Shown one piece after another: positions 2,679 to 32,940 of a DNA stretch of 64,000 nucleotides. The stretch comes from an uncultured Flavobacteriales bacterium (lineage in GTDB: Bacteria; Bacteroidota; Bacteroidia; Flavobacteriales; Crocinitomicaceae), in NCBI GenBank assembly GCA_946479285.1, contig CAMLFH010000003.1, positions 186,001 through 250,000 on the forward strand, given 5' to 3'. The position numbers and the translations under genes were made by a program. The notes below the pieces were generated by a model. It was not told where the DNA came from. It saw only the letters and a list, made by a program, of their open reading frames with translations, and searched no databases. The stretch's first letter is position 1. The number at the start of each line of letters is the position of its first letter.

Positions 2679-4181
2679 CTATTCCACCGATGAATCCAAT
2701 AATTTATCTGACTGATTATCTTTCTTCTTAAACACCAGGTAATAAATCGGAATTCCTGCAAGGATCAACAAAATACTCCCAAACGTATCCCAAAAAGTAA
2801 ATAGTGTGAGTGAAACGCAAATTATCACCGCAAAAACCAAATACAAAAACGGAATCACCGGATAACCGAAAGCTTTGTATGGTCTGTGAGCATCTGGCAT
2901 GGTTCTGCGCAATTTGAACAAACCAAGAATCGTTACGATGTAGAAAATCATCGATCCGAAGGTCGCGAACTTGATCAGGATCCCGTAAGAACCAGAACAA
3001 CATAAAATGATCGACCACAAAGCCTGGATCCACATTGCCCAGGCAGGAACTCCGAAACTATTTAACTGGCTTGCCTTTTTGAAAAACAAGCCGTCTTTCG
3101 ACATCGCATAAAACAAACGTGAACCTGCCATGATCAATCCGTTATTACAACCGAATGTGGAAATCATGATCAATATGGCCATCAGGATATTTGCTACATT
3201 TCCAAACAACATAAACGCTGCCGACGTTCCTACTCTATCCGAACTGGCAAATTGAATTCCTGTTGATTGAACAGCTTCTTTGGTGTAGACAAAATTGCCT
3301 TCAAAAGGAGCTCCGTGAATCGGAAGCAAACCAAGGTAGGCAACATTTGCCAAAATGTAAAGAATAGTAACGATGAATGTACCCAGGAACAAAGCTCTTG
3401 GTAGATTTCTTTCGGGATTTCGAATATCTCCTGCAATAAACGTTACATTGTTCCACGCGTCTGAAGAGAACAGTGAGTTGATGATGGTTGTAGACAAAAC
3501 AATCATTAATCCAACAGTGGTCAGATCAACTGCAGGAAGCCAATTCCCCAATTCGTCTTTCTTGATAGAACTTGCATGCCACATATTTTCAAAATTCGCA
3601 TCAAAAAAACCGGATGAAAACCCAACCACTATTCCGGCAACGATCAAGACAGCAAGAGCAATTAACTTGGAACTGGTGAAAATCGCCTGTATGATTTTGC
3701 CATAATTGATTCCGCGAACATTGATAATGGTAAGGATCAGAATCGTGGCTACCCCAACGAAATTGGCTCCGTTAATCTTCACTGAACCGTATTCGAGCAA
3801 GGTTTTATCTACTAATACAGGAAAGAAAACTCCCGCAAACTTCCCGAATGCCACGGCTACTGCTGCAATTACTCCCGTTTGGATTACAGCAAAGGTTGTC
3901 CAGCCGTATAGAAACGACGGCAATTTCCCCCAAGCCTCGCGGATATAAACAAATTGTCCGCCTGCTTTCGGGAACATTGCAGCCAACTCTCCGTAACTTA
4001 AGGCACCAAACAAGGTAATAACTCCCGTAATTAACCAGGTAAAAAGTAACCATCCGGAACTTCCCAAATCGCGCGACATTTCTGCGGAAACAATGAATAT
4101 TCCCGAACCGATCATACTTCCCGCAACCAGGAAAGTTGCATCCAGCAAGCCCAATGATTTCTTAGTCGTGTTTTCTTCCAT
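2679..4181 (-). CDS. APC-superfamily amino acid permease (LAT/YfnA-like)
   Basis: 500 residues with about 12 hydrophobic segments. The N-terminus carries the APC hallmark GSMIGSGIFIV (about 21-31), the unwound first helix that binds the amino-acid backbone. YGELAAMFPKAGGQFVYIREA (about 83-103) marks helix 3. It probably moves amino acids across the inner membrane by exchange or cation symport; the substrate cannot be read from sequence. A second, distantly related APC permease lies directly upstream on the same strand. A terminator separates them, so they are neighbours rather than one operon. The C-terminal tail is short, charged and cytoplasmic. Confidence 0.88.
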   Translation of the reverse strand: MEENTTKKSLGLLDATFLVAGSMIGSGIFIVSAEMSRDLGSSGWLLFTWLITGVITLFGALSYGELAAMFPKAGGQFVYIREAWGKLPSFLYGWTTFAVIQTGVIAAVAVAFGKFAGVFFPVLVDKTLLEYGSVKINGANFVGVATILILTIINVRGINYGKIIQAIFTSSKLIALAVLIVAGIVVGFSSGFFDANFENMWHASSIKKDELGNWLPAVDLTTVGLMIVLSTTIINSLFSSDAWNNVTFIAGDIRNPERNLPRALFLGTFIVTILYILANVAYLGLLPIHGAPFEGNFVYTKEAVQSTGIQFASSDRVGTSAAFMLFGNVANILMAILIMISTFGCNNGLIMAGSRLFYAMSKDGLFFKKASQLNSFGVPAWAMWIQALWSIILCCSGSYGILIKFATFGSMIFYIVTILGLFKLRRTMPDAHRPYKAFGYPVIPFLYLVFAVIICVSLTLFTFWDTFGSILLILAGIPIYYLVFKKKDNQSDKLLDSSVE

Positions 4182-4190
4182 AAGCAGTAA

Positions 4191-4228
4191 TAAAAAAGTC
4201 CCGATTCGTCGCTGCGGATCGGGACTTT
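4191..4228 (-). terminator. Rho-independent terminator after the second permease gene
   Basis: Arms AAAGTCCCGAT and ATCGGGACTTT (11 bp) are followed by T residues on the minus strand, 17 nt past the stop of the gene at 4245-5762. Confidence 0.85.
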
Positions 4229-4244
4229 ATGAATTCAAATAAAT

Positions 4245-5762
4245 TTATTCTTCAGGAGCTTCTTCTTCCGTATCATGTCCGGTGATGGAAGCATCTAAAT
4301 TGTAATGATTCAGATTACTTTTTCTACGGCTATACAGGAAGTAAATGACAATTCCTAAAGCAAGCCAGCTCAATGAAAGCAACTGTGCATCAATACTCAA
4401 ATTACACATCAGGTAGATATTGATAGAAATACCCAAAACCGCTATTACAGGAAGAGCCGGAACTTTAAATGTACGCGGTAAATTCGGTTGTTTCACGCGG
4501 AGTACCCAAACTGCGATACAAACCATTAAGAACGCAAACAAGGTTCCGAAACTAGTCATATCAGCAAGTTTATTGATCGGTGTAAAGGCAGCCACAGTTG
4601 CAATGATAACCCCAAGAATGTAAAGGTTTCGTTTTGGAGTTCCTGAAACCGGGTTAATTTCCGAAAAAACTTTAGGTATCAATCCATCTTTTGCCATTCC
4701 AAGGAAAATACGGGATTGTCCCATGATCATTACCATCAATACAGAAACCAAACCAATAGTTGCCGCAATTGTAATTAGTGTACTTGCCCATTTTTGACCG
4801 GCAATATCGAAGGCATAGGCAACAGGAGCTTTAATTGCATCCGGATAAGCACCTTTCGGATCGAAGTCCTGGTAGTTCATCATTCCCGTTAATACTAAGG
4901 AAACAAGGATGTATAAAACGGTACAGATCAATAAGGAAGCAACGATAGCAAACGGCACATCTTTCTTCGGATTAATTGCTTCACCAGCCTGTGTTGAAAC
5001 GGCATCAAAACCTACGTAAGCAAAGAAGATAGCTGCAGCACCGGAAACAATTCCTGTAACTCCATAAGCATTATGCATGACACCCTCATGTGAAATTTGC
5101 TTTACATCAGGAATAAACGGAGACCAATTGGCCATATTAATAAAGAACAAACCGGCAATAATTACAAACAGTACTGCTGCCACTTTCAGGATTACAATGA
5201 AATTATTGGCTTTCGCTGCGCCTTTAGTTCCTCTAACCAAAATTCCAACAACCAATAAAACAATTAGGAATGCAGGTAAATTCATCGAAAAACCTGTACC
5301 TGTGTAACTTGCAGGATCGGAGGTTAAATAGTCCGGTAAGACTATGTGGAATACCTTGAGGAGTTTATTAAAGTATCCTGACCACGAAACGGCGACTGTC
5401 ATTGATCCCATTGCATATTCCAAAACAAGTCCCCAACCAATGATCCAAGCCAAAAGTTCACCGATTGTTCCGTATGCATAAGCATAAGCTGAACCTTCAA
5501 CCGGTAAAATTGCTGCAAATTCCGAATAACATAAAGCTGCGAAAACACATGCAATCCCTGCGATTATAAAGGATAGAGATAACGCAGGACCTGCATGATA
5601 ATAAGCTCCCGTTCCCGTTAGAACAAAAATTCCACCTCCGATAATTGCACCAACTCCAATTGCTGTTAAGCTCCATTTTCCAAGAACACGCTTCAATTGA
5701 CTTTTCTTCATGTCGTCTTCAAAAGCGCTCATTGGTTTTTTACGCCATACACTGCCTGCCAT
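4245..5762 (-). CDS. APC-superfamily permease, cationic amino acid transporter (CAT) type
   Basis: 505 residues and about 12 membrane segments. The IGVGAIIGGGIFVLTG motif (about 35-50) is the APC substrate-binding loop. CYSEFAAILPVEGSAYAYAY and the IGWGLVLEY segment are typical of the CAT branch, which carries Lys/Arg/ornithine or other amino acids. The first ~30 residues and the last ~35, with a run of Glu, are predicted cytoplasmic. ATG at 5762 gives a normal N-terminus; an in-frame Met at residue 12 is an alternative. A near-consensus -7 box TATCTTTA lies about 30 nt upstream. Substrate unknown. Confidence 0.88.
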   Translation of the reverse strand: MAGSVWRKKPMSAFEDDMKKSQLKRVLGKWSLTAIGVGAIIGGGIFVLTGTGAYYHAGPALSLSFIIAGIACVFAALCYSEFAAILPVEGSAYAYAYGTIGELLAWIIGWGLVLEYAMGSMTVAVSWSGYFNKLLKVFHIVLPDYLTSDPASYTGTGFSMNLPAFLIVLLVVGILVRGTKGAAKANNFIVILKVAAVLFVIIAGLFFINMANWSPFIPDVKQISHEGVMHNAYGVTGIVSGAAAIFFAYVGFDAVSTQAGEAINPKKDVPFAIVASLLICTVLYILVSLVLTGMMNYQDFDPKGAYPDAIKAPVAYAFDIAGQKWASTLITIAATIGLVSVLMVMIMGQSRIFLGMAKDGLIPKVFSEINPVSGTPKRNLYILGVIIATVAAFTPINKLADMTSFGTLFAFLMVCIAVWVLRVKQPNLPRTFKVPALPVIAVLGISINIYLMCNLSIDAQLLSLSWLALGIVIYFLYSRRKSNLNHYNLDASITGHDTEEEAPEE

Positions 5763-21405: not shown

Positions 21406-21974
21406 ATTATTCAAGATACTTGAACCAGGAGGTTTATTCGCTAAACGACTTCCAGGTAACTCCAATGAGAGAAAGCGATATTTTACGCATCAAAGAATGG
21501 AGAAATGCACAAATGGATGTGCTCCGCCAGGCTAAATTGATCAGTAATGAAGAGCAGGTAAATTATTACAAAAATGTGGTTGTTCCGAGTTTTGAAAAAG
21601 AATATCCGAATATCATGCTTTTTAGTTTTTTGCAGGCCGGTAAATGCATTGGTTACGGCGGACTAACGAATATTCACTGGCCGGACAAACGTGCGGAACT
21701 TTCATTTCTTGTCGATCCGGATCATGCAGCCGATCTGTCGGTTTACGAGCAGGATTTCAGTCACTTCATCGAACTCATGAAGGAAATTGCTTTCAAAGCA
21801 TTGGGGTTTAATCGGATCTTTACAGAGACTTACGATATACGCGATCATCATATAGGGATTTTAGAATCCTGCGGCTTCGTATTGGAAGGCAGAATGCGCT
21901 CTCACGTATGTATTAATGGTATCTTTGTAGATTCTCTGATTCATGGAATAGTAAAAAAAGATTATGGACTTTAA
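21402..21974 (+). CDS. GNAT N-acetyltransferase, PseH-like
   Basis: 190 residues with the GNAT layout: FQVTPMRESDILRIKEWRN at the N-terminus, CIGYGGLTNIHW as the central strand, and FTETYDIRDHHIGILESCGFVLEGRMRSH near the C-terminus, the usual RimJ/RimL-like acetyl-CoA region. In pseudaminic acid synthesis PseH acetylates C4-NH2 of the UDP-sugar after PseC, and the position in this operon fits. It overlaps both neighbours (4 nt upstream, 11 nt downstream), so translation is probably coupled. The acyl donor need not be acetyl-CoA. Confidence 0.8.
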   Translation: MNYSRYLNQEVYSLNDFQVTPMRESDILRIKEWRNAQMDVLRQAKLISNEEQVNYYKNVVVPSFEKEYPNIMLFSFLQAGKCIGYGGLTNIHWPDKRAELSFLVDPDHAADLSVYEQDFSHFIELMKEIAFKALGFNRIFTETYDIRDHHIGILESCGFVLEGRMRSHVCINGIFVDSLIHGIVKKDYGL

Positions 21975-23862
21975 AGGAAAACGGATTTTTATCAGCGGTG
22001 GTGCCGGCGTAATTGGAACAGAAATGGTACAACTACTTCATCAGCAGGGAGCTCATATTATGGTGGGCGATCTAAAGCCCATTCCTACCGATTTTCCGTC
22101 AACAATTATTTACCGCCAGGGCGATTTAAATTCCATCACTCAAGCCGAATTAGATCATTTCAACCCGGAATATTTTATTCACCTTGCAGCCACATTCGAG
22201 CGTTCTGCCGAAACATACGAACACTGGGAAGAAAACTTCCATCACAATATTTTGTTGAGCCATCATTTGATGACATTGATGCGGAATGTTCCCGGATTAA
22301 AACGGGTAGTTAATGCATCCAGCTATTTGATTTACGACAAGACACATTACCAGTTTAAAGAAGCTCAGGAAAAAGCAGTAAAACTGACGGAGTCACATAC
22401 CATTAATCCGAGGAACCTGACCGGGCTGGCAAAACTGGCTCATGAAATTGAACTGGATTTTCTGGCCATTTTCAAGTCAGATCAATTTACCAGTATTTCT
22501 GCACGTATTTATCGTGGCTATGGTAAAAACTCACGCGATATTATTTCCCGCTGGGTGAGAGATTTGTTGAATAACCAGAAAATTACCGTCTACAATCCGG
22601 AGGGTTTTTTTGATTATATCTATGCCGGAGACACTGCAAAAGGATTACTTAAACTGGCGCTCTGTGATCAAACGGGAATTGTAAACCTGGGAACGGGAAG
22701 ATCCAGGCAAGTTGGAGACGTCATTCAAATTCTCCAGGTGCATTTCCCGCAAATGCAGGCTGAACATATTCGGAAAACGGATGAGCTAATTGAAGCCTCC
22801 GAAGCAGACACGACTTTATTGAAAAGTTATATCAACTGGACACCGGAACGGGATTTGGAAAATACCATTCCTGAAATCATTGCATTCGAACAGCAAAGAT
22901 CTGTAGAAAAAGAAGTCATTTACGGCCATATTCTGGTTACAAGTGCTTCCCGCAAGATTGGTTTAATTCAGGCAGTTAAAAAAGCTTCGAATAAAATCCA
23001 CCCTTCGATCAAAGTAATTGCAGCAGATGCCTCTGATACCTGTTTGGCAAAACATTTCTCAGATGATTTTTGGAAAATTCCGTTCATTAGTCAAATTGAT
23101 ATCAAGGAATTTATACAAAGCTGTAAAACAAAATCTATCCAATTGATTATCCCATCCCGCGATGGTGAATTGGCTTTTTTCTCCGAACACAAATCACAGT
23201 TCAAAGAAGCAGGAATTCATGTGATGGTCTCTGATAAAGAATCCATTGAAAAATGCGTCGACAAACTGTCGTTTTATACCAATAACAAAAACATTCCAAC
23301 CATTATTCCCGCATTTGAAGACATTGCTTCAGCGAATGGAACAGCCTTCGTTGTAAAGGAGCGTTTTGGTGCCGGATCAGATTCAATCGGTATCAATTTA
23401 AACGCAGCTGATGCTTTGGCCCATTCCAAACAATTGCAGCATCCGATATTCCAGCCTTTTATTGAAGGTTCGGAATTAAGTATTGATGCATATATTGATA
23501 CTTCCCGGAAAGTAAAAGGATTGGTTATGCGAAAAAGAGAGCTGGTTGTTAACGGTGAATCTCAGATTACTACTACTATTCAGGACAATCAATTGGAAAG
23601 CGCATTCTATGCCGTCATTGACAGCTTGAAATTGAGCGGACATATCATTTTACAAGCCATTATCGATTCAAAAGGAGAAATTCACATCATCGAATGCAAT
23701 CCACGGTTCGGTGGAGCTTCCACTCTTTCAATCAAAGCCGGATTGGACAGTTTTTACTGGGCTTATCTTGAAAGTTCGAATATTTCCATTGAATCTTATC
23801 CGTTTATTCCAACCAAAGAACCGATTACCCAGGTTCGCTATCCGGCAGATCTGTATTTATGA
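21964..23862 (+). CDS. fusion protein: SDR epimerase/dehydratase domain plus ATP-grasp ligase domain
   Basis: 632 residues. Residues 1-~305 are an extended SDR: NAD loop GGAGVIG (12-18), NASSYLIYD with the catalytic Ser region (118-125), but the YxxxK dyad reads TGLAK (153-157), so the catalytic Tyr is Thr. A linker is followed by ~318-632, an ATP-grasp domain of the PylC/carbamoyl-phosphate-synthase type with GHILVTSASRKIG, VVKERFGAGSDSIGI (nucleotide-binding lysine region) and ECNPRFGGAS (from Glu577, metal and ATP binding). ATP-grasp enzymes ligate a carboxylate to an amine. In this operon the domain could add an amino-acid or other acyl group to the nonulosonate. It overlaps the GNAT gene and the HAD gene. 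Substrate unproven. Confidence 0.8.
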   Translation: MDFKGKRIFISGGAGVIGTEMVQLLHQQGAHIMVGDLKPIPTDFPSTIIYRQGDLNSITQAELDHFNPEYFIHLAATFERSAETYEHWEENFHHNILLSHHLMTLMRNVPGLKRVVNASSYLIYDKTHYQFKEAQEKAVKLTESHTINPRNLTGLAKLAHEIELDFLAIFKSDQFTSISARIYRGYGKNSRDIISRWVRDLLNNQKITVYNPEGFFDYIYAGDTAKGLLKLALCDQTGIVNLGTGRSRQVGDVIQILQVHFPQMQAEHIRKTDELIEASEADTTLLKSYINWTPERDLENTIPEIIAFEQQRSVEKEVIYGHILVTSASRKIGLIQAVKKASNKIHPSIKVIAADASDTCLAKHFSDDFWKIPFISQIDIKEFIQSCKTKSIQLIIPSRDGELAFFSEHKSQFKEAGIHVMVSDKESIEKCVDKLSFYTNNKNIPTIIPAFEDIASANGTAFVVKERFGAGSDSIGINLNAADALAHSKQLQHPIFQPFIEGSELSIDAYIDTSRKVKGLVMRKRELVVNGESQITTTIQDNQLESAFYAVIDSLKLSGHIILQAIIDSKGEIHIIECNPRFGGASTLSIKAGLDSFYWAYLESSNISIESYPFIPTKEPITQVRYPADLYL

Positions 23863-28752: not shown

Positions 28753-29721
28753 ATGAAAATAGTTGCTCTCATTCTAATTTTGGCAAGCTTGGTTTTTAAA
28801 GTCAATGCTTCCGAACAAATAAAATCCATATCCGGGTTTTATATTTATAAGACCAGTAAAAACATGTCGGTGAGCAAGGGAGAAGCTAAATTCACCCTTC
28901 ATTTTTACAGCCAGAATTTCAGTGATGTTCCAAAAGGATACGAAACTATTATCTATTATTCTGTCAATGACTTAATCGATACCCTGGTTTTAGATTCTTC
29001 CTTTACAACAAGCATTCAAATTCCTATGGGAAAAACGGTATTCAAATTTTGGCCGGGACCAGGTTATAATGAAGTCATCAGCGATACGATAGAGGTGACT
29101 GATCAAACGGAGTATGAAGCGCAGGTGTATTTCCTTTCCGAGAATTTGATGATAGAAGTGGACAAACCGGTTATTTACCTTCAAAGTCCGGTAAAACTGG
29201 ATTTTTCAATCCGTATAAAACCAACGAATGAGTTCACTTTCACTTATCCGGCGTACAAAGAAAATTGGAAAGGAAGCGTTTATCCGACAGGTGAAATCGA
29301 GATCGGCAAGCAGAAATATCCTTACCTGTTCTGGAATTCGAAACAGGCATTCAGCCTGAAAAAGCATGCAAACGGATACCGCGTTTCAAGAGCAGATGTC
29401 ATTTCTTTTTTGGAAAAGCAACTTTCCAATGCAGGTTTGACATCCACCGAAAAAACCGATTTTATTACTTTCTGGGGACCGCGATTGACACAATACGAAT
29501 CGGTATTCATTCAATTTTACCTGCAGGAAGACTGCAACCAGTTTGCGCATTTGGAGTGTGAACCCATGCCAACAGCTATCAACCGGCTTTACATTGCCTT
29601 TTCCGAATGGAATTATCAATTGGAATCTTTTACCCATCCGGTCGAACTTCCTGCTTTCAAACGCGAAGGTTTTAATCTCTTGGAATGGGGCGGATTTGAA
29701 CTAAAATCAATCGAATTATGA
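28753..29721 (+). CDS. uncharacterised secreted protein, paralogue 1 of 4 (YPYLFW/EWGG family)
   Basis: 322 residues with a signal peptide (about 1-20, cleavage near VNAS). An N-terminal region (about 25-135), probably beta-rich, contains FKFWPGPGYNEVISDTI. The family domain follows, with KPVIYL, TYPAYKENWKG, YPYLFWNS, EKTDFITFWGP, NRLYIAF and a terminal LEWGGFE. No catalytic motif is recognised. It opens an array of four such genes and overlaps the next by 4 nt. I recall similar strings in uncharacterised proteins of other phyla but know no function. It is probably periplasmic or exported. Confidence 0.85.
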   Translation: MKIVALILILASLVFKVNASEQIKSISGFYIYKTSKNMSVSKGEAKFTLHFYSQNFSDVPKGYETIIYYSVNDLIDTLVLDSSFTTSIQIPMGKTVFKFWPGPGYNEVISDTIEVTDQTEYEAQVYFLSENLMIEVDKPVIYLQSPVKLDFSIRIKPTNEFTFTYPAYKENWKGSVYPTGEIEIGKQKYPYLFWNSKQAFSLKKHANGYRVSRADVISFLEKQLSNAGLTSTEKTDFITFWGPRLTQYESVFIQFYLQEDCNQFAHLECEPMPTAINRLYIAFSEWNYQLESFTHPVELPAFKREGFNLLEWGGFELKSIEL

Positions 29722-30698
29722 ACCAAAAACTGTATTTACTGGTTGTACTAATGATTCCGTTTTTCGGCTTGTCTGAGGGAATAAAATCTGTTTCACCAAT
29801 TAGGTTAATCAAAGACAGCGTTTCCGGAAAAATTCATTCCGACAGTATTAGACTGGTCTTTCAAGTGGAGGATTTCTATGATCAATTGATGTTGAACCAA
29901 CATGCTGCAATTATCCAGGTCAAAATTGACGGTCGAACAAAGAAATATACGGTTACGAATAAAAAGCGGACCTTTCAATTTGCTTTATCAAAAGGAAAAC
30001 ACCAATTAAATTTCTTTGTGAATGCTAACTTTGAAGAGATCAGTCTTGATCAGGAATTCAAAGGGAGCCACTATTATGAATATGGTTTAAACTTTCAGGG
30101 AGGCGAAAATTCAGGGACACAAATTATGGTAGAAAAACCGGTCATTTACTTTTACACCGGGAAAAAAGAACCATTCAGCCTGAAGATCAAAACAGATGCT
30201 GAATTACAATTTACTTATCCAGCGTATGAAAATGAATGGAAAGGAACTACTTCTCCGGATGGAACTATTCAGATCAACGGATCAAACTATCCGTATCTTT
30301 TTTGGGATGCGCAGCTTCCTGTTGAAAAGCTGAATTTGAACTGGCAGCATTCGGAACAGATCCTGGGTACACAAACTAGCCAATACCTTTCAGCACAACT
30401 GGATTATTTGGGATTTAATCCGAAAGAAAAAGCGGATTTTATCACTTACTGGGGACCACGGATGCAAAAAATGAAATACGTGGAAATACTTTGGATCCAA
30501 AACGAATCCATTGATGCAATTGCTTCCCTGGAAACTTCTCCTGTGTTTAATCAGAACCGCATTTACATTGTTTTCAAAGAAATCAGCGAACTTACAGATA
30601 AAGCTTTAATACAAAGACTGAACCAGCTGATGCCCATTAAACGGGCTAATAACTGTTTGGTGGAATGGGGCGGAATCGAAATGCCCTCCAATTTATAA
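29718..30698 (+). CDS. uncharacterised secreted protein, paralogue 2 of 4
   Basis: 326 residues, signal peptide 1-~20. It has the same two-part layout as its neighbours: an N-terminal domain with FFVNANFEEISLDQEF, then KPVIYFY, TYPAYENEWKG, YPYLFWDA, EKADFITYWGP, NRIYIVF and LVEWGGIE. It is the most divergent copy in the middle, with ETSPVF replacing the EPxP stretch. It overlaps the first gene by an ATGA junction, and 3 nt separate it from the third. No function known. Confidence 0.85.
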   Translation: MNQKLYLLVVLMIPFFGLSEGIKSVSPIRLIKDSVSGKIHSDSIRLVFQVEDFYDQLMLNQHAAIIQVKIDGRTKKYTVTNKKRTFQFALSKGKHQLNFFVNANFEEISLDQEFKGSHYYEYGLNFQGGENSGTQIMVEKPVIYFYTGKKEPFSLKIKTDAELQFTYPAYENEWKGTTSPDGTIQINGSNYPYLFWDAQLPVEKLNLNWQHSEQILGTQTSQYLSAQLDYLGFNPKEKADFITYWGPRMQKMKYVEILWIQNESIDAIASLETSPVFNQNRIYIVFKEISELTDKALIQRLNQLMPIKRANNCLVEWGGIEMPSNL

Positions 30699-30701
30699 GT
30701 C

Positions 30702-31649
30702 ATGCGTACACTATTCTTTTTCTTATTGATCAGTTCTAATTTGTTGGCAAATGCCCCGGAATGGATTCCTGATTACTTGGTGAGTTATCAAACCGATAAA
30801 AAGCCATCCAACACCGGTTCCCGGATCCGGATTGTTTGTGAGTTTGATTCAGATTACGACTTGTTCCGTGAATTGCGCTTCGGGATGAACGGAAGCAATG
30901 AACGGATCAGGATGAACGACAAAAACGAAGTGGAAGTCATCCGAAAACCACAAAAAGCCGTTTTTCAATTCTACTATGACAGTAACTTCCAGGAAATTGA
31001 AACAGATTCCATTGAAGTCAAAAAAGGACAAATAACTGTTATTTCTTTGCATTTCAAAGCGAGGAATGAACCTCGTCCGGTGAAAAAACCGGTCATTTAC
31101 CTTTACCCGGAATCGGACACCGAAGTTTCTGTTCAACTCAAAACAGCCGGCGAATTAACTTTTTCTTACCCGGATTATGCTTCCGGATGGAAAGGAACCG
31201 CTCATTCGGATGGTTCTATCGATGTAAACGGAAATCGCTACCCGTACTTGTTTTGGGAATCGGAACAACGTTTTAACAATTTCAATTTAAAGATTGGCGG
31301 ATTTCTCATAGACAAAGAAAATGTCATCGTATCCTTGGAAAAACACCTGTCTGATCTTGGATTCAACGACAAAGAGAAAACAGATTTCATTACATTTTGG
31401 GGACCACAACTGCTGCAGCATAAACAAGTGTTGATTCAATTCATTCTACATGATTCCTGCAACGAGTTCGCTGCATTGGAAATTGAACCGAAACCGGAGC
31501 ATTTAAACCGGGTTTATATGATTTGGCATGGGATTGATGGTCCGTTTAAAACTTTTCTGAATCCTCAAAAACTAAAAACCATGAATCGTAATGGCTTTGA
31601 TGTGCTGGAATGGGGCGGAATTGAAATCAAACCCACTCATTCAAACTAA
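30702..31649 (+). CDS. uncharacterised secreted protein, paralogue 3 of 4
   Basis: 315 residues, signal peptide about 1-17 (LLISSNLLANA). The N-terminal part contains VFQFYYDSNFQEIETDSI, matching the equivalent stretch of copies 1 and 2. The family domain has KPVIYLYPESDTEVSV, SYPDYASGWKG, YPYLFWES, EKTDFITFWGP, NRVYMIW and LEWGGIE. The domain is nearly the same as in copy 4 at DNA level over about 150 bp, pointing to a recent duplication. Function unknown. Confidence 0.85.
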   Translation: MRTLFFFLLISSNLLANAPEWIPDYLVSYQTDKKPSNTGSRIRIVCEFDSDYDLFRELRFGMNGSNERIRMNDKNEVEVIRKPQKAVFQFYYDSNFQEIETDSIEVKKGQITVISLHFKARNEPRPVKKPVIYLYPESDTEVSVQLKTAGELTFSYPDYASGWKGTAHSDGSIDVNGNRYPYLFWESEQRFNNFNLKIGGFLIDKENVIVSLEKHLSDLGFNDKEKTDFITFWGPQLLQHKQVLIQFILHDSCNEFAALEIEPKPEHLNRVYMIWHGIDGPFKTFLNPQKLKTMNRNGFDVLEWGGIEIKPTHSN

Positions 31650-31655
31650 ACAACT

Positions 31656-32318
31656 ATGAGACAATTAATCTTTCTTGCACTAGCGAGTACGGTACTTTTC
31701 TCTTCATGCAGAGACAAAAAAGAAGAACCTTCATTGAAGAAACCCGTCATATACTTCTATCCGGAATCAGACACCGAAGTTTCCGTTGAACTCAAAACTA
31801 CCGGCAACCTGACATTTTCCTACCCGGATTATGCCTCAGGCTGGAAGGGAACAGCACATCCGGATGGTTCAATCGATGTAAACGGAAAACACTACCCCTA
31901 TTTGTTCTGGGAATCTCAGCAGCCTTTTAATTCATTTAATAAAGAGATCGGCTGTGTGCTTTTATACAAAGAACATGCTGTAAAATCTTTGGAAAAGCAT
32001 CTGACTAAACTGGGATTCAACGAAAAAGAAAAAACAGATTTCATTACTTATTGGGGACCACAAATTAGTAAGCATGAATTGGTCATGGCTCAATTCCTGA
32101 TCAATGAAGAGTGTGAAGAATTTGCAACCTTAGCTATTCAACCAACTCCCGCACATTTAAACAGGGTTTATCTAATTTGGACAAACTTCGAACTGAATTC
32201 GTCACAAATTCCATTAATTAAAACCCAAATACTACATCCACTCAACCGCGATGGCTTTGATGTTTTGGAATGGGGCGGAATTGAATTGGAGAGACCGGGA
32301 CCAGTCATGACTAATTGA
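31656..32318 (+). CDS. uncharacterised lipoprotein, paralogue 4 of 4 (minimal form)
   Basis: 220 residues. A lipobox LFSSC at about 14-18 makes it a predicted lipoprotein, unlike the other three copies. The N-terminal domain of copies 1-3 is absent: only ten residues separate the lipid Cys from KPVIYFYPESDTEVSV. The family domain is complete, with SYPDYASGWKG, YPYLFWES, EKTDFITYWGP, NRVYLIW and LEWGGIE. It therefore defines the core of the family. Probably in the outer membrane or inner-membrane periplasmic face. Confidence 0.87.
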   Translation: MRQLIFLALASTVLFSSCRDKKEEPSLKKPVIYFYPESDTEVSVELKTTGNLTFSYPDYASGWKGTAHPDGSIDVNGKHYPYLFWESQQPFNSFNKEIGCVLLYKEHAVKSLEKHLTKLGFNEKEKTDFITYWGPQISKHELVMAQFLINEECEEFATLAIQPTPAHLNRVYLIWTNFELNSSQIPLIKTQILHPLNRDGFDVLEWGGIELERPGPVMTN

Positions 32319-32444: not shown

Positions 32445-32882
32445 ATGAAAAAGTTATTACTCTTACTTGCGGTATCGGGTACTGTATTGGTTACATCTTG
32501 TAACACGGCAACAGATGCTGATTATGATGCAATGGCACAAGACATGTGCGACTGTGTGAACAAATCTTCAACAGGGATTTCTGACAACATGAAAGATGCG
32601 ATTGTGAAATCTGAAAAAGACGGAACAGATATGCAGGCTGCAGTTACTGAGGTGATGATGAAAGATCTGAAAACCGGAATGGCTGACGCACAGGCAATGC
32701 AGGACCTTGGAACAGAAATGCAGGGATGCTCCAAAGAGTTGGAGAAAAAGTATGACAAAGTTTATACTACCGAAACAGAAGACCAGGTGATCGAAAAACT
32801 TCTAAGTTCTTTGAAAGCAAAAAAGGGATGTGAATTTACTTATGCAATCATGAAAATGGGCGCAAAAGAAATGAAGAAATAA
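32445..32882 (+). CDS. small lipoprotein of unknown function
   Basis: 145 residues from the ATG at 32445; the longer frame has no signal sequence before it. Lipobox LVTSC at about 14-18. The mature part is helical and Met- and Lys-rich, with Cys in MCDCVNKS, MQGCSKELEKK and KKGCEF. These four cysteines may form disulfides after export. No family recognised. Ends in a strong terminator. Confidence 0.8.
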   Translation: MKKLLLLLAVSGTVLVTSCNTATDADYDAMAQDMCDCVNKSSTGISDNMKDAIVKSEKDGTDMQAAVTEVMMKDLKTGMADAQAMQDLGTEMQGCSKELEKKYDKVYTTETEDQVIEKLLSSLKAKKGCEFTYAIMKMGAKEMKK

Positions 32883-32905
32883 GATATCAATAAAATACAA
32901 TTCAG

Positions 32906-32940
32906 GTAGGGACGCGACGCATCGCGTCCCTACTTTTTTT
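32906..32940 (+). terminator. palindrome plus T-tract, terminator after the small lipoprotein
   Basis: 12-bp arms GTAGGGACGCGA and TCGCGTCCCTAC around CGCA, followed by seven T. The same palindrome family occurs at 34191 and 38394, without T-tracts there. Confidence 0.8.

What the first reader, a model, noticed from the sequence alone, without database searches (positions are those of the whole stretch)
28753..32318. Four-gene tandem array of an uncharacterised exported family
All four share KPVIY, YP-Y..WKG, YPYLFW, EK.DFI..WGP, NR.Y and a terminal EWGG. Three have a signal peptide and an extra N-terminal domain; the fourth is a lipoprotein with the core alone. Copies 3 and 4 are nearly identical at DNA level over the core. 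The conserved Trp, Glu and Gly may form a binding or catalytic site. No known function.
Basis: partly seen in the sequence, partly recalled or inferred. Interest (0 to 1): 0.7.

Follow-up and report, generated by a model that had tools for sequence, protein, structure and literature searches.

The report
Unnamed surface-protein domain in tandem genes
Four neighbouring genes in a freshwater Bacteroidota genome encode exported-looking proteins that end in the same domain, which occurs in several bacterial phyla, matched no named family or solved structure searched here, and keeps a nearly unchanging set of charged and aromatic residues.

Summary
The array is real: four co-directional genes (28753-32318), with gaps of at most 6 bases. 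All four end in a ~185-residue core, KPVIY to EWGG. Copies 1-3 add an N-terminal domain; a copy-3 model matches the transthyretin-like fold there. Copy 4 is a core-only putative lipoprotein inside the copy-3 clade, but 70.6% identical to copy 3 in core nucleotides, not "nearly identical". Copies 1-3 have orthologues in order in three other loci; 2-8 family genes stand together in 41 of 76 loci. The core matched no Pfam, NCBIfam or PHROGs family and no PDB sequence; its confident model (pLDDT 91.5) has no convincing PDB match. It recurs in Bacteroidota, Clostridia and Patescibacteria, C-terminal in the members read. Lys, Trp, Glu, two Arg and the final Trp-Gly are kept in at least 480 of 481 cores. 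New lead: in 16 of 32 core-bearing Patescibacteria genomes a Memo-family gene (9 of 16 fused to CapA-type PGA_cap) lies within 7 kb on the same strand; 4 of 5 new cases readable upstream agree. The link fails outside Patescibacteria. I favour a domain that binds an anionic envelope polymer; ligand and activity are untested.

The parts
28753..29721 (+). copy 1, 322 aa, N-terminal domain plus core
29161..29703 (+). core of copy 1 (KPVIY to EWGG)
29718..30698 (+). copy 2, 326 aa, overlaps copy 1 by 4 bases
30132..30686 (+). core of copy 2
30702..31649 (+). copy 3, 315 aa, N-terminal domain plus core
30819..31067 (+). N-terminal transthyretin-like domain of copy 3 (model residues 40-122)
31083..31631 (+). 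core of copy 3
31656..32318 (+). copy 4, 220 aa, core-only putative lipoprotein (lipobox by eye)
31737..32285 (+). core of copy 4, modelled at pLDDT 91.5 (whole protein)
32445..32882 (+). small putative lipoprotein downstream, relatives beside arrays in L002, L003 and listed for L004; membership in the unit uncertain
32904..32935 (+). terminator-like hairpin after the small lipoprotein gene (4 found in the region, 4.0 expected by chance)

Best explanation
The four genes encode exported proteins whose common C-terminal core is a conserved extracytoplasmic domain. Most likely it is a binding module: conserved Lys, two Arg, two Glu and three Trp form one pocket that holds an anionic envelope polymer, for example a glycan with acidic sugars or a poly-gamma-glutamate-like chain. 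The transthyretin-like domain of copies 1-3 would act as spacer or adaptor; copy 4 would hold the same module on a lipid anchor. Copies 1-3 would be long-lived paralogues that divide ligands or places among them. Shown: array, domain anatomy, conservation, rough signs of purifying selection on copies 1-3, spread over phyla, operon-like pairing with Memo or Memo/CapA-type genes in half of the core-bearing Patescibacteria sampled. Inferred: export, pocket, binding, kind of ligand, division of labour.
For: Near-invariant K2, Y6, P30, W36, E97, W105, R142, R166, W174, G175 (479 or more of 481) and E173 (473, Asp in 8); much the same in 40 cores taken from profile hits. No His, Cys, Ser or Asp among the columns kept at 97% or more. 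The core stands C-terminal on different carriers: CarboxypepD_reg-like, SLH and Cu_amine_oxidN1, BspA-type repeats, and by eye lipoprotein or membrane anchors. dN/dS 0.06-0.19 between full-length orthologues in the 6 of 9 pairs where dS could be computed. Memo within 7 kb and on the same strand in 16 of 32 core-bearing Patescibacteria genomes; 4 of 5 new cases readable upstream agree. The window array lies beside a sugar operon with NeuB and a YfhO-like gene, and NeuB relatives lie near the array in 6 other loci.
Against: No ligand or activity was tested, and no coordinates were at hand to show that the invariant residues meet in one pocket. Memo is absent at E<=1e-3 from 100 of 100 genomes of the Fluviicola family and was not sought in Clostridia. 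PGA_cap lies close to the core in only 1 of 34 other genomes (29 clostridial by record, 4 Bacteroidota, 1 Patescibacteria), though 26 of 34 hold one somewhere. The NeuB and YfhO neighbours may be mere regional synteny: other arrays (for example L018, L019, L027, L030, L034) lack them. Memo has no settled function (recalled).
Confidence: 0.38

Rival explanations
1. The core is an enzyme that cuts or modifies an envelope polymer; the two conserved Glu act as acid/base or nucleophile, Lys and Arg hold the substrate.
For: E97 invariant and E173 Glu or Asp in 481 of 481 distinct cores, with Trp, Lys and Arg; Memo and PGA_cap neighbours look like enzymes by family name.
Against: No match to an enzyme family or a known enzyme fold; no distance between the Glu residues could be measured.
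Confidence: 0.22
2. The core is a protein-docking module that holds partner proteins, such as the Memo/CapA-type neighbour, at the cell surface.
For: Same-strand pairing with Memo genes in 16 of 32 Patescibacteria genomes; many different carrier domains.
Against: No such neighbour in the Fluviicola family (Memo 0 of 100) and PGA_cap close in 1 of 34 other genomes, while the same residues stay conserved.
Confidence: 0.2
3. The array is a set of immunity or defence proteins against toxins of competitors, multiplied by duplication.
For: Tandem diverged paralogues with copy number from 2 to 8 per locus.
Against: Copies 1-3 are kept in order across Fluviicola loci; one residue set is kept across phyla; no toxin gene was noticed beside the window array (PADLOC was not searched).
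Confidence: 0.08
4. The conserved residues are structural only, and the domain is a stable spacer or folding cap at the C-terminus of exported proteins.
For: C-terminal place in the members read; many invariant columns are Gly, Pro and Trp.
Against: Near-invariant Lys, Arg and Glu are unusual for a mere spacer; copy 4 consists of the core alone.
Confidence: 0.12

Closest known systems
Transthyretin-like / CarboxypepD_reg domains (5aq0_B, human carboxypeptidase D)
   Different: 11% identity; copy 3 itself matches neither Pfam model; the core is a separate domain
Uncharacterised protein A0A3G4ZNZ8 of Terrestrivirus (giant virus)
   Same: Foldseek E 5.3e-14, TM-score 0.67 on the query, 22% identity
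   Different: 406 aa, rmsd 11.2 over the whole alignment, function unknown; the only match at E<=0.001 in the viral library
BspA-family leucine-rich repeat surface protein of Ruminococcus albus 7 (WP_013483720.1, plasmid pRUMAL02)
   Same: Ends in the core, 54.9% identical to the Tyzzerella protein used as query
   Different: Named for its repeats; single copy beside unrelated genes; the core is not annotated
Adaptor-protein mu homology domains (AP-4 mu4, 3l81_A)
   Different: Too weak to mean kinship; 4% identity; eukaryotic adaptor proteins

Membership tests
Transthyretin-like / CarboxypepD_reg (N-terminal domain only) | same fold by structural alignment | tested here: met
Transthyretin-like / CarboxypepD_reg (N-terminal domain only) | Pfam match by the window's own copies | tested here: not met
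   no CarboxypepD_reg hit at E<=1 for copies 1-3
Type IX secretion cargo | C-terminal sorting domain | tested here: not met
   no sorting-domain family among hits at E<=1 for the four copies; the C-terminus is the core
Bacterial lipoprotein (copy 4) | signal peptide with lipobox cysteine | tested here: inconclusive
   LFSSC by eye in P0004; no predictor run
DUF7878 (PF25297) | score over the Pfam cut-off | tested here: inconclusive
   L065 19.2 bits against a cut-off of 25; 3 of 52 cores at E<=1, best E 4.6e-4, cut-off not shown there
AP mu homology domain | same fold | tested here: inconclusive
Memo (PF01875) or PGA_cap (PF09587) | domain present in the core proteins themselves | tested here: not met
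   no hit in the window copies at E<=1; not among the 25 of 30 families shown for 52 cores; only neighbour proteins match
Any family with a solved structure (core) | significant sequence or fold match | tested here: inconclusive

The most novel reading that the evidence does not exclude
The core is a protein domain with a fold not yet seen in solved structures, spread over at least three bacterial phyla and one giant virus, with a near-invariant Lys-Trp-Glu-Arg-Arg-Glu-Trp site that binds or processes an anionic envelope polymer; in Patescibacteria it works as one unit with a Memo/CapA-type protein, and in Fluviicola it has been multiplied into a conserved set of surface proteins.
Probability: 0.27. 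Interest if true: 0.85.

Novelty: new variant of a known kind. Interest (0 to 1): 0.6.

Why it matters
One search alone found 2785 relatives at E<=1e-3, yet the core has no model in the Pfam, NCBIfam or PHROGs copies searched and no solved relative was found. The residue pattern is as strict as that of many enzymes or specific binders, so one structure with a ligand could annotate thousands of proteins, many of them in the ultrasmall Patescibacteria. The pairing with Memo/CapA-type genes also gives a testable lead on bacterial Memo proteins. The array itself, a set of diverged tandem paralogues, is an ordinary kind of locus.

Tried and rejected
Sequence libraries: Pfam, NCBIfam and PHROGs gave only scattered weak hits for the core. 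DUF2750 (5 of 52 cores, best E 0.0072) and DUF7878 (3 of 52, best E 4.6e-4) were not followed further.

Viral contigs: 62 stretches matched a pattern, none encoded a relative by tblastn.

CapA/Memo as a universal partner: rejected. Memo 0 of 100 in the Fluviicola family; PGA_cap close to the core in 1 of 34 other genomes. PGA_cap (any match at E<=1e-3, weak partial ones included) is commoner with the core in the Fluviicola family (34 of 45 against 29 of 55, p 0.02), but within 20 kb of it in only 4 of 45: about 4 kb in G079, 5 kb in G099, 19-20 kb in G003 and G091.

Literature: full-text searches for KPVIYLYP, KPVIYLY, YPYLFW, 'EWGG motif', Fluviicola + paralog, Crocinitomicaceae + hypothetical protein + tandem, Fluviicola/Crocinitomicaceae/surface protein, Memo-like protein + PGA_cap, AmmeMemoRadiSam, Patescibacteria/CapA/poly-gamma-glutamate showed nothing on this domain; only search listings were seen, no paper was opened. 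Relatives in fungi are recalled, not tested.

Full report
Observation. The four ORFs lie where the finding puts them and share all the motifs it names. They are co-directional: copies 1 and 2 overlap by 4 bases, and gaps of 3 and 6 bases follow. The one wrong detail is copies 3 and 4: 70.6% nucleotide and 64.7% protein identity over the core, pS 0.62; only the first 60 codons are closer, 82.8% and 88.3%.

Where it is. The named best relatives of copy 3 are Fluviicola proteins, so the window is probably from Fluviicola or a close relative. No whole genome is held for it.

History. In a tree of 85 cores, copies 1, 2 and 3 each group with the gene at the same place in L001, L002 and L003 (support 100/98, 100/100 and 99/94). 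Copy 4 falls inside the copy-3 clade with P0050, P0060 and P0041 (the bootstrap had not settled). P0041 is a full-length protein of F. taffensis (318 aa), so copy 4 need not descend from the window's own copy 3. For the nine full-length orthologue pairs of copies 1-3, dN/dS could be computed in six and is 0.06-0.19; synonymous sites are near saturation, so these are rough. Copies 1-3 thus look like long-lived paralogues, not a fresh amplification.

Spread. Three homology searches gave 869, 1131 and 2785 proteins at E<=1e-3 (overlapping sets, not to be added). Two or more family genes stand in 41 of the 76 loci, all co-directional within a locus, up to 8; L076, a clostridial pair, is the one case not of Bacteroidota by record or content. 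By sampled genomes, centre genome counted, the core occurs in 45 of 100 of the Fluviicola family (G035 is only a weak N-terminal match), 13 of 198 of its phylum, 5 of 299 of the phylum of a Lachnoclostridium genome and 32 of 192 of the phylum of a Falkowbacteria genome.

Architecture. In the members read, the core is the last domain. Carriers include SLH (L037) and Cu_amine_oxidN1 (L070), BspA-type repeats (L097), CarboxypepD_reg (L039, below the cut-off) and, by eye, lipoprotein or membrane anchors. Most long N-terminal parts scanned matched no Pfam family over its cut-off. One member, L108, shows no obvious export signal by eye.

Conservation. In 481 distinct cores W36, E97, W174 and G175 are invariant; K2, P3, P30, W105, R142 and R166 are kept in 480, Y6 and G176 in 479, E173 in 473 with Asp in the other 8 (485 of 490 rows had fewer than 20 gaps, then identical rows were merged). 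Many rows were found through words or patterns around KPVIY and DFITYW, which biases those columns. In 40 rows from loci that I picked among profile hits in genomes, W36, E97, W105, E173, W174 and G175 are 40 of 40, K2, R142 and R166 39, and G176 38. All four window copies keep the charged and Trp columns; copy 1 departs at Y8 and copy 2 at P137.

Neighbours. A YfhO-like gene lies by the array in 10 loci, the window included, and in most of these a response-regulator gene follows on the other side. Upstream in the window is a run of genes with Polysacc_synt_2, DegT aminotransferase, cytidylyltransferase, acetyltransferase and NeuB domains, which from general knowledge looks like nonulosonate synthesis. 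NeuB relatives lie near the array in 6 other loci (one, L009, confirmed by Pfam). Other arrays (L018, L019, L034 and more) sit elsewhere, so this link may be positional only.

Patescibacteria. Clustering of neighbours showed that 10 of 15 Patescibacteria loci (L102-L114, L117, L118) have a gene of one family beside the core gene. Of these ten, eight partners were scanned: four match both Memo (PF01875) and PGA_cap (PF09587), three Memo alone, and one, a cut piece, PGA_cap alone; some frames were cut by the locus ends, and one Memo score (26.8) is just under the cut-off of 27. Over 192 genomes the core is in 32, Memo in 49, both in 18 (Fisher p 7e-5); PGA_cap is in 26 of 32 with and 76 of 160 without the core (p 4e-4). 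Genomes are related, so these p-values overstate independence. Memo lies within 7 kb of the core in 16 of 32 (15 of them within 2.7 kb), on the same strand in all 16, in either order; in 9 of the 16 PGA_cap is in the same open frame. As a check I searched the class of G671: 11 of 49 genomes hold the core, 7 of them new, with 8 core genes. With a profile made from the earlier partners, a Memo gene stands directly upstream on the same strand in 4 of the 8; in 3 the upstream side is cut by the contig end, and in 1 there is none.

Mechanism. I favour a binding module for an anionic envelope polymer (0.38), with an enzyme (0.22) and a docking module (0.20) as main rivals. The reasons are the strict Lys/Arg/Glu/Trp set, the lack of a conserved nucleophile or metal pattern, the many carriers, and glycan- or capsule-related neighbours in two unrelated groups. 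The neighbour evidence fails for PGA_cap in Clostridia and for Memo in the Fluviicola family.

Novelty. The array is an ordinary kind of locus. The core is an unnamed family in the libraries searched, possibly with an unseen fold; the absence of a match does not prove that. I rate it a new variant of a known kind (modular exported proteins) and put the bolder reading in the novel case.

Noticed in passing
window 32445-32882; loci L002, L003, L004: Small putative lipoprotein with a CDCV motif beside the array in Fluviicola-type loci; in nine other loci a different small exported-looking protein family stands at or near the array end (cluster 5).
   Followed up: partly
window 21964-23862: One protein joins an epimerase domain to PylC-like/ATP-grasp domains within the sugar gene run.
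   Followed up: no
L003 (CP034120.1): Record titled Glaciecola amylolytica carries a Fluviicola-type array and synteny, so the title is probably wrong; L014, L024, L032 and L033 (Chitinophaga and Chryseobacterium MAG titles) also carry such arrays.
   Followed up: no
L077-L081: About 500-aa putative lipoproteins, with repeat-like N-terminal parts by eye, end in the core; all five genomes also hold a separate tandem set.
   Followed up: partly
L082-L084: The N-terminal part looks by eye like an outer-membrane barrel before the core; L083 matched no Pfam family.
   Followed up: no
L098 (MT835506.1) 3128-4543: An unverified, unannotated phage record from faeces encodes a core protein; it could be a bacterial contig.
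   Followed up: no
L018, L019, L027, L030, L034, L035, L043, L046: A second array position: an exported-looking protein of about 250 aa (cluster 7; CarboxypepD_reg-like below the cut-off in L019) stands directly upstream in eight loci.
   Followed up: partly
Patescibacteria loci L104, L107, L110, L118: Proteins that join Memo and PGA_cap domains; a full-text search with both names found no paper.
   Followed up: partly
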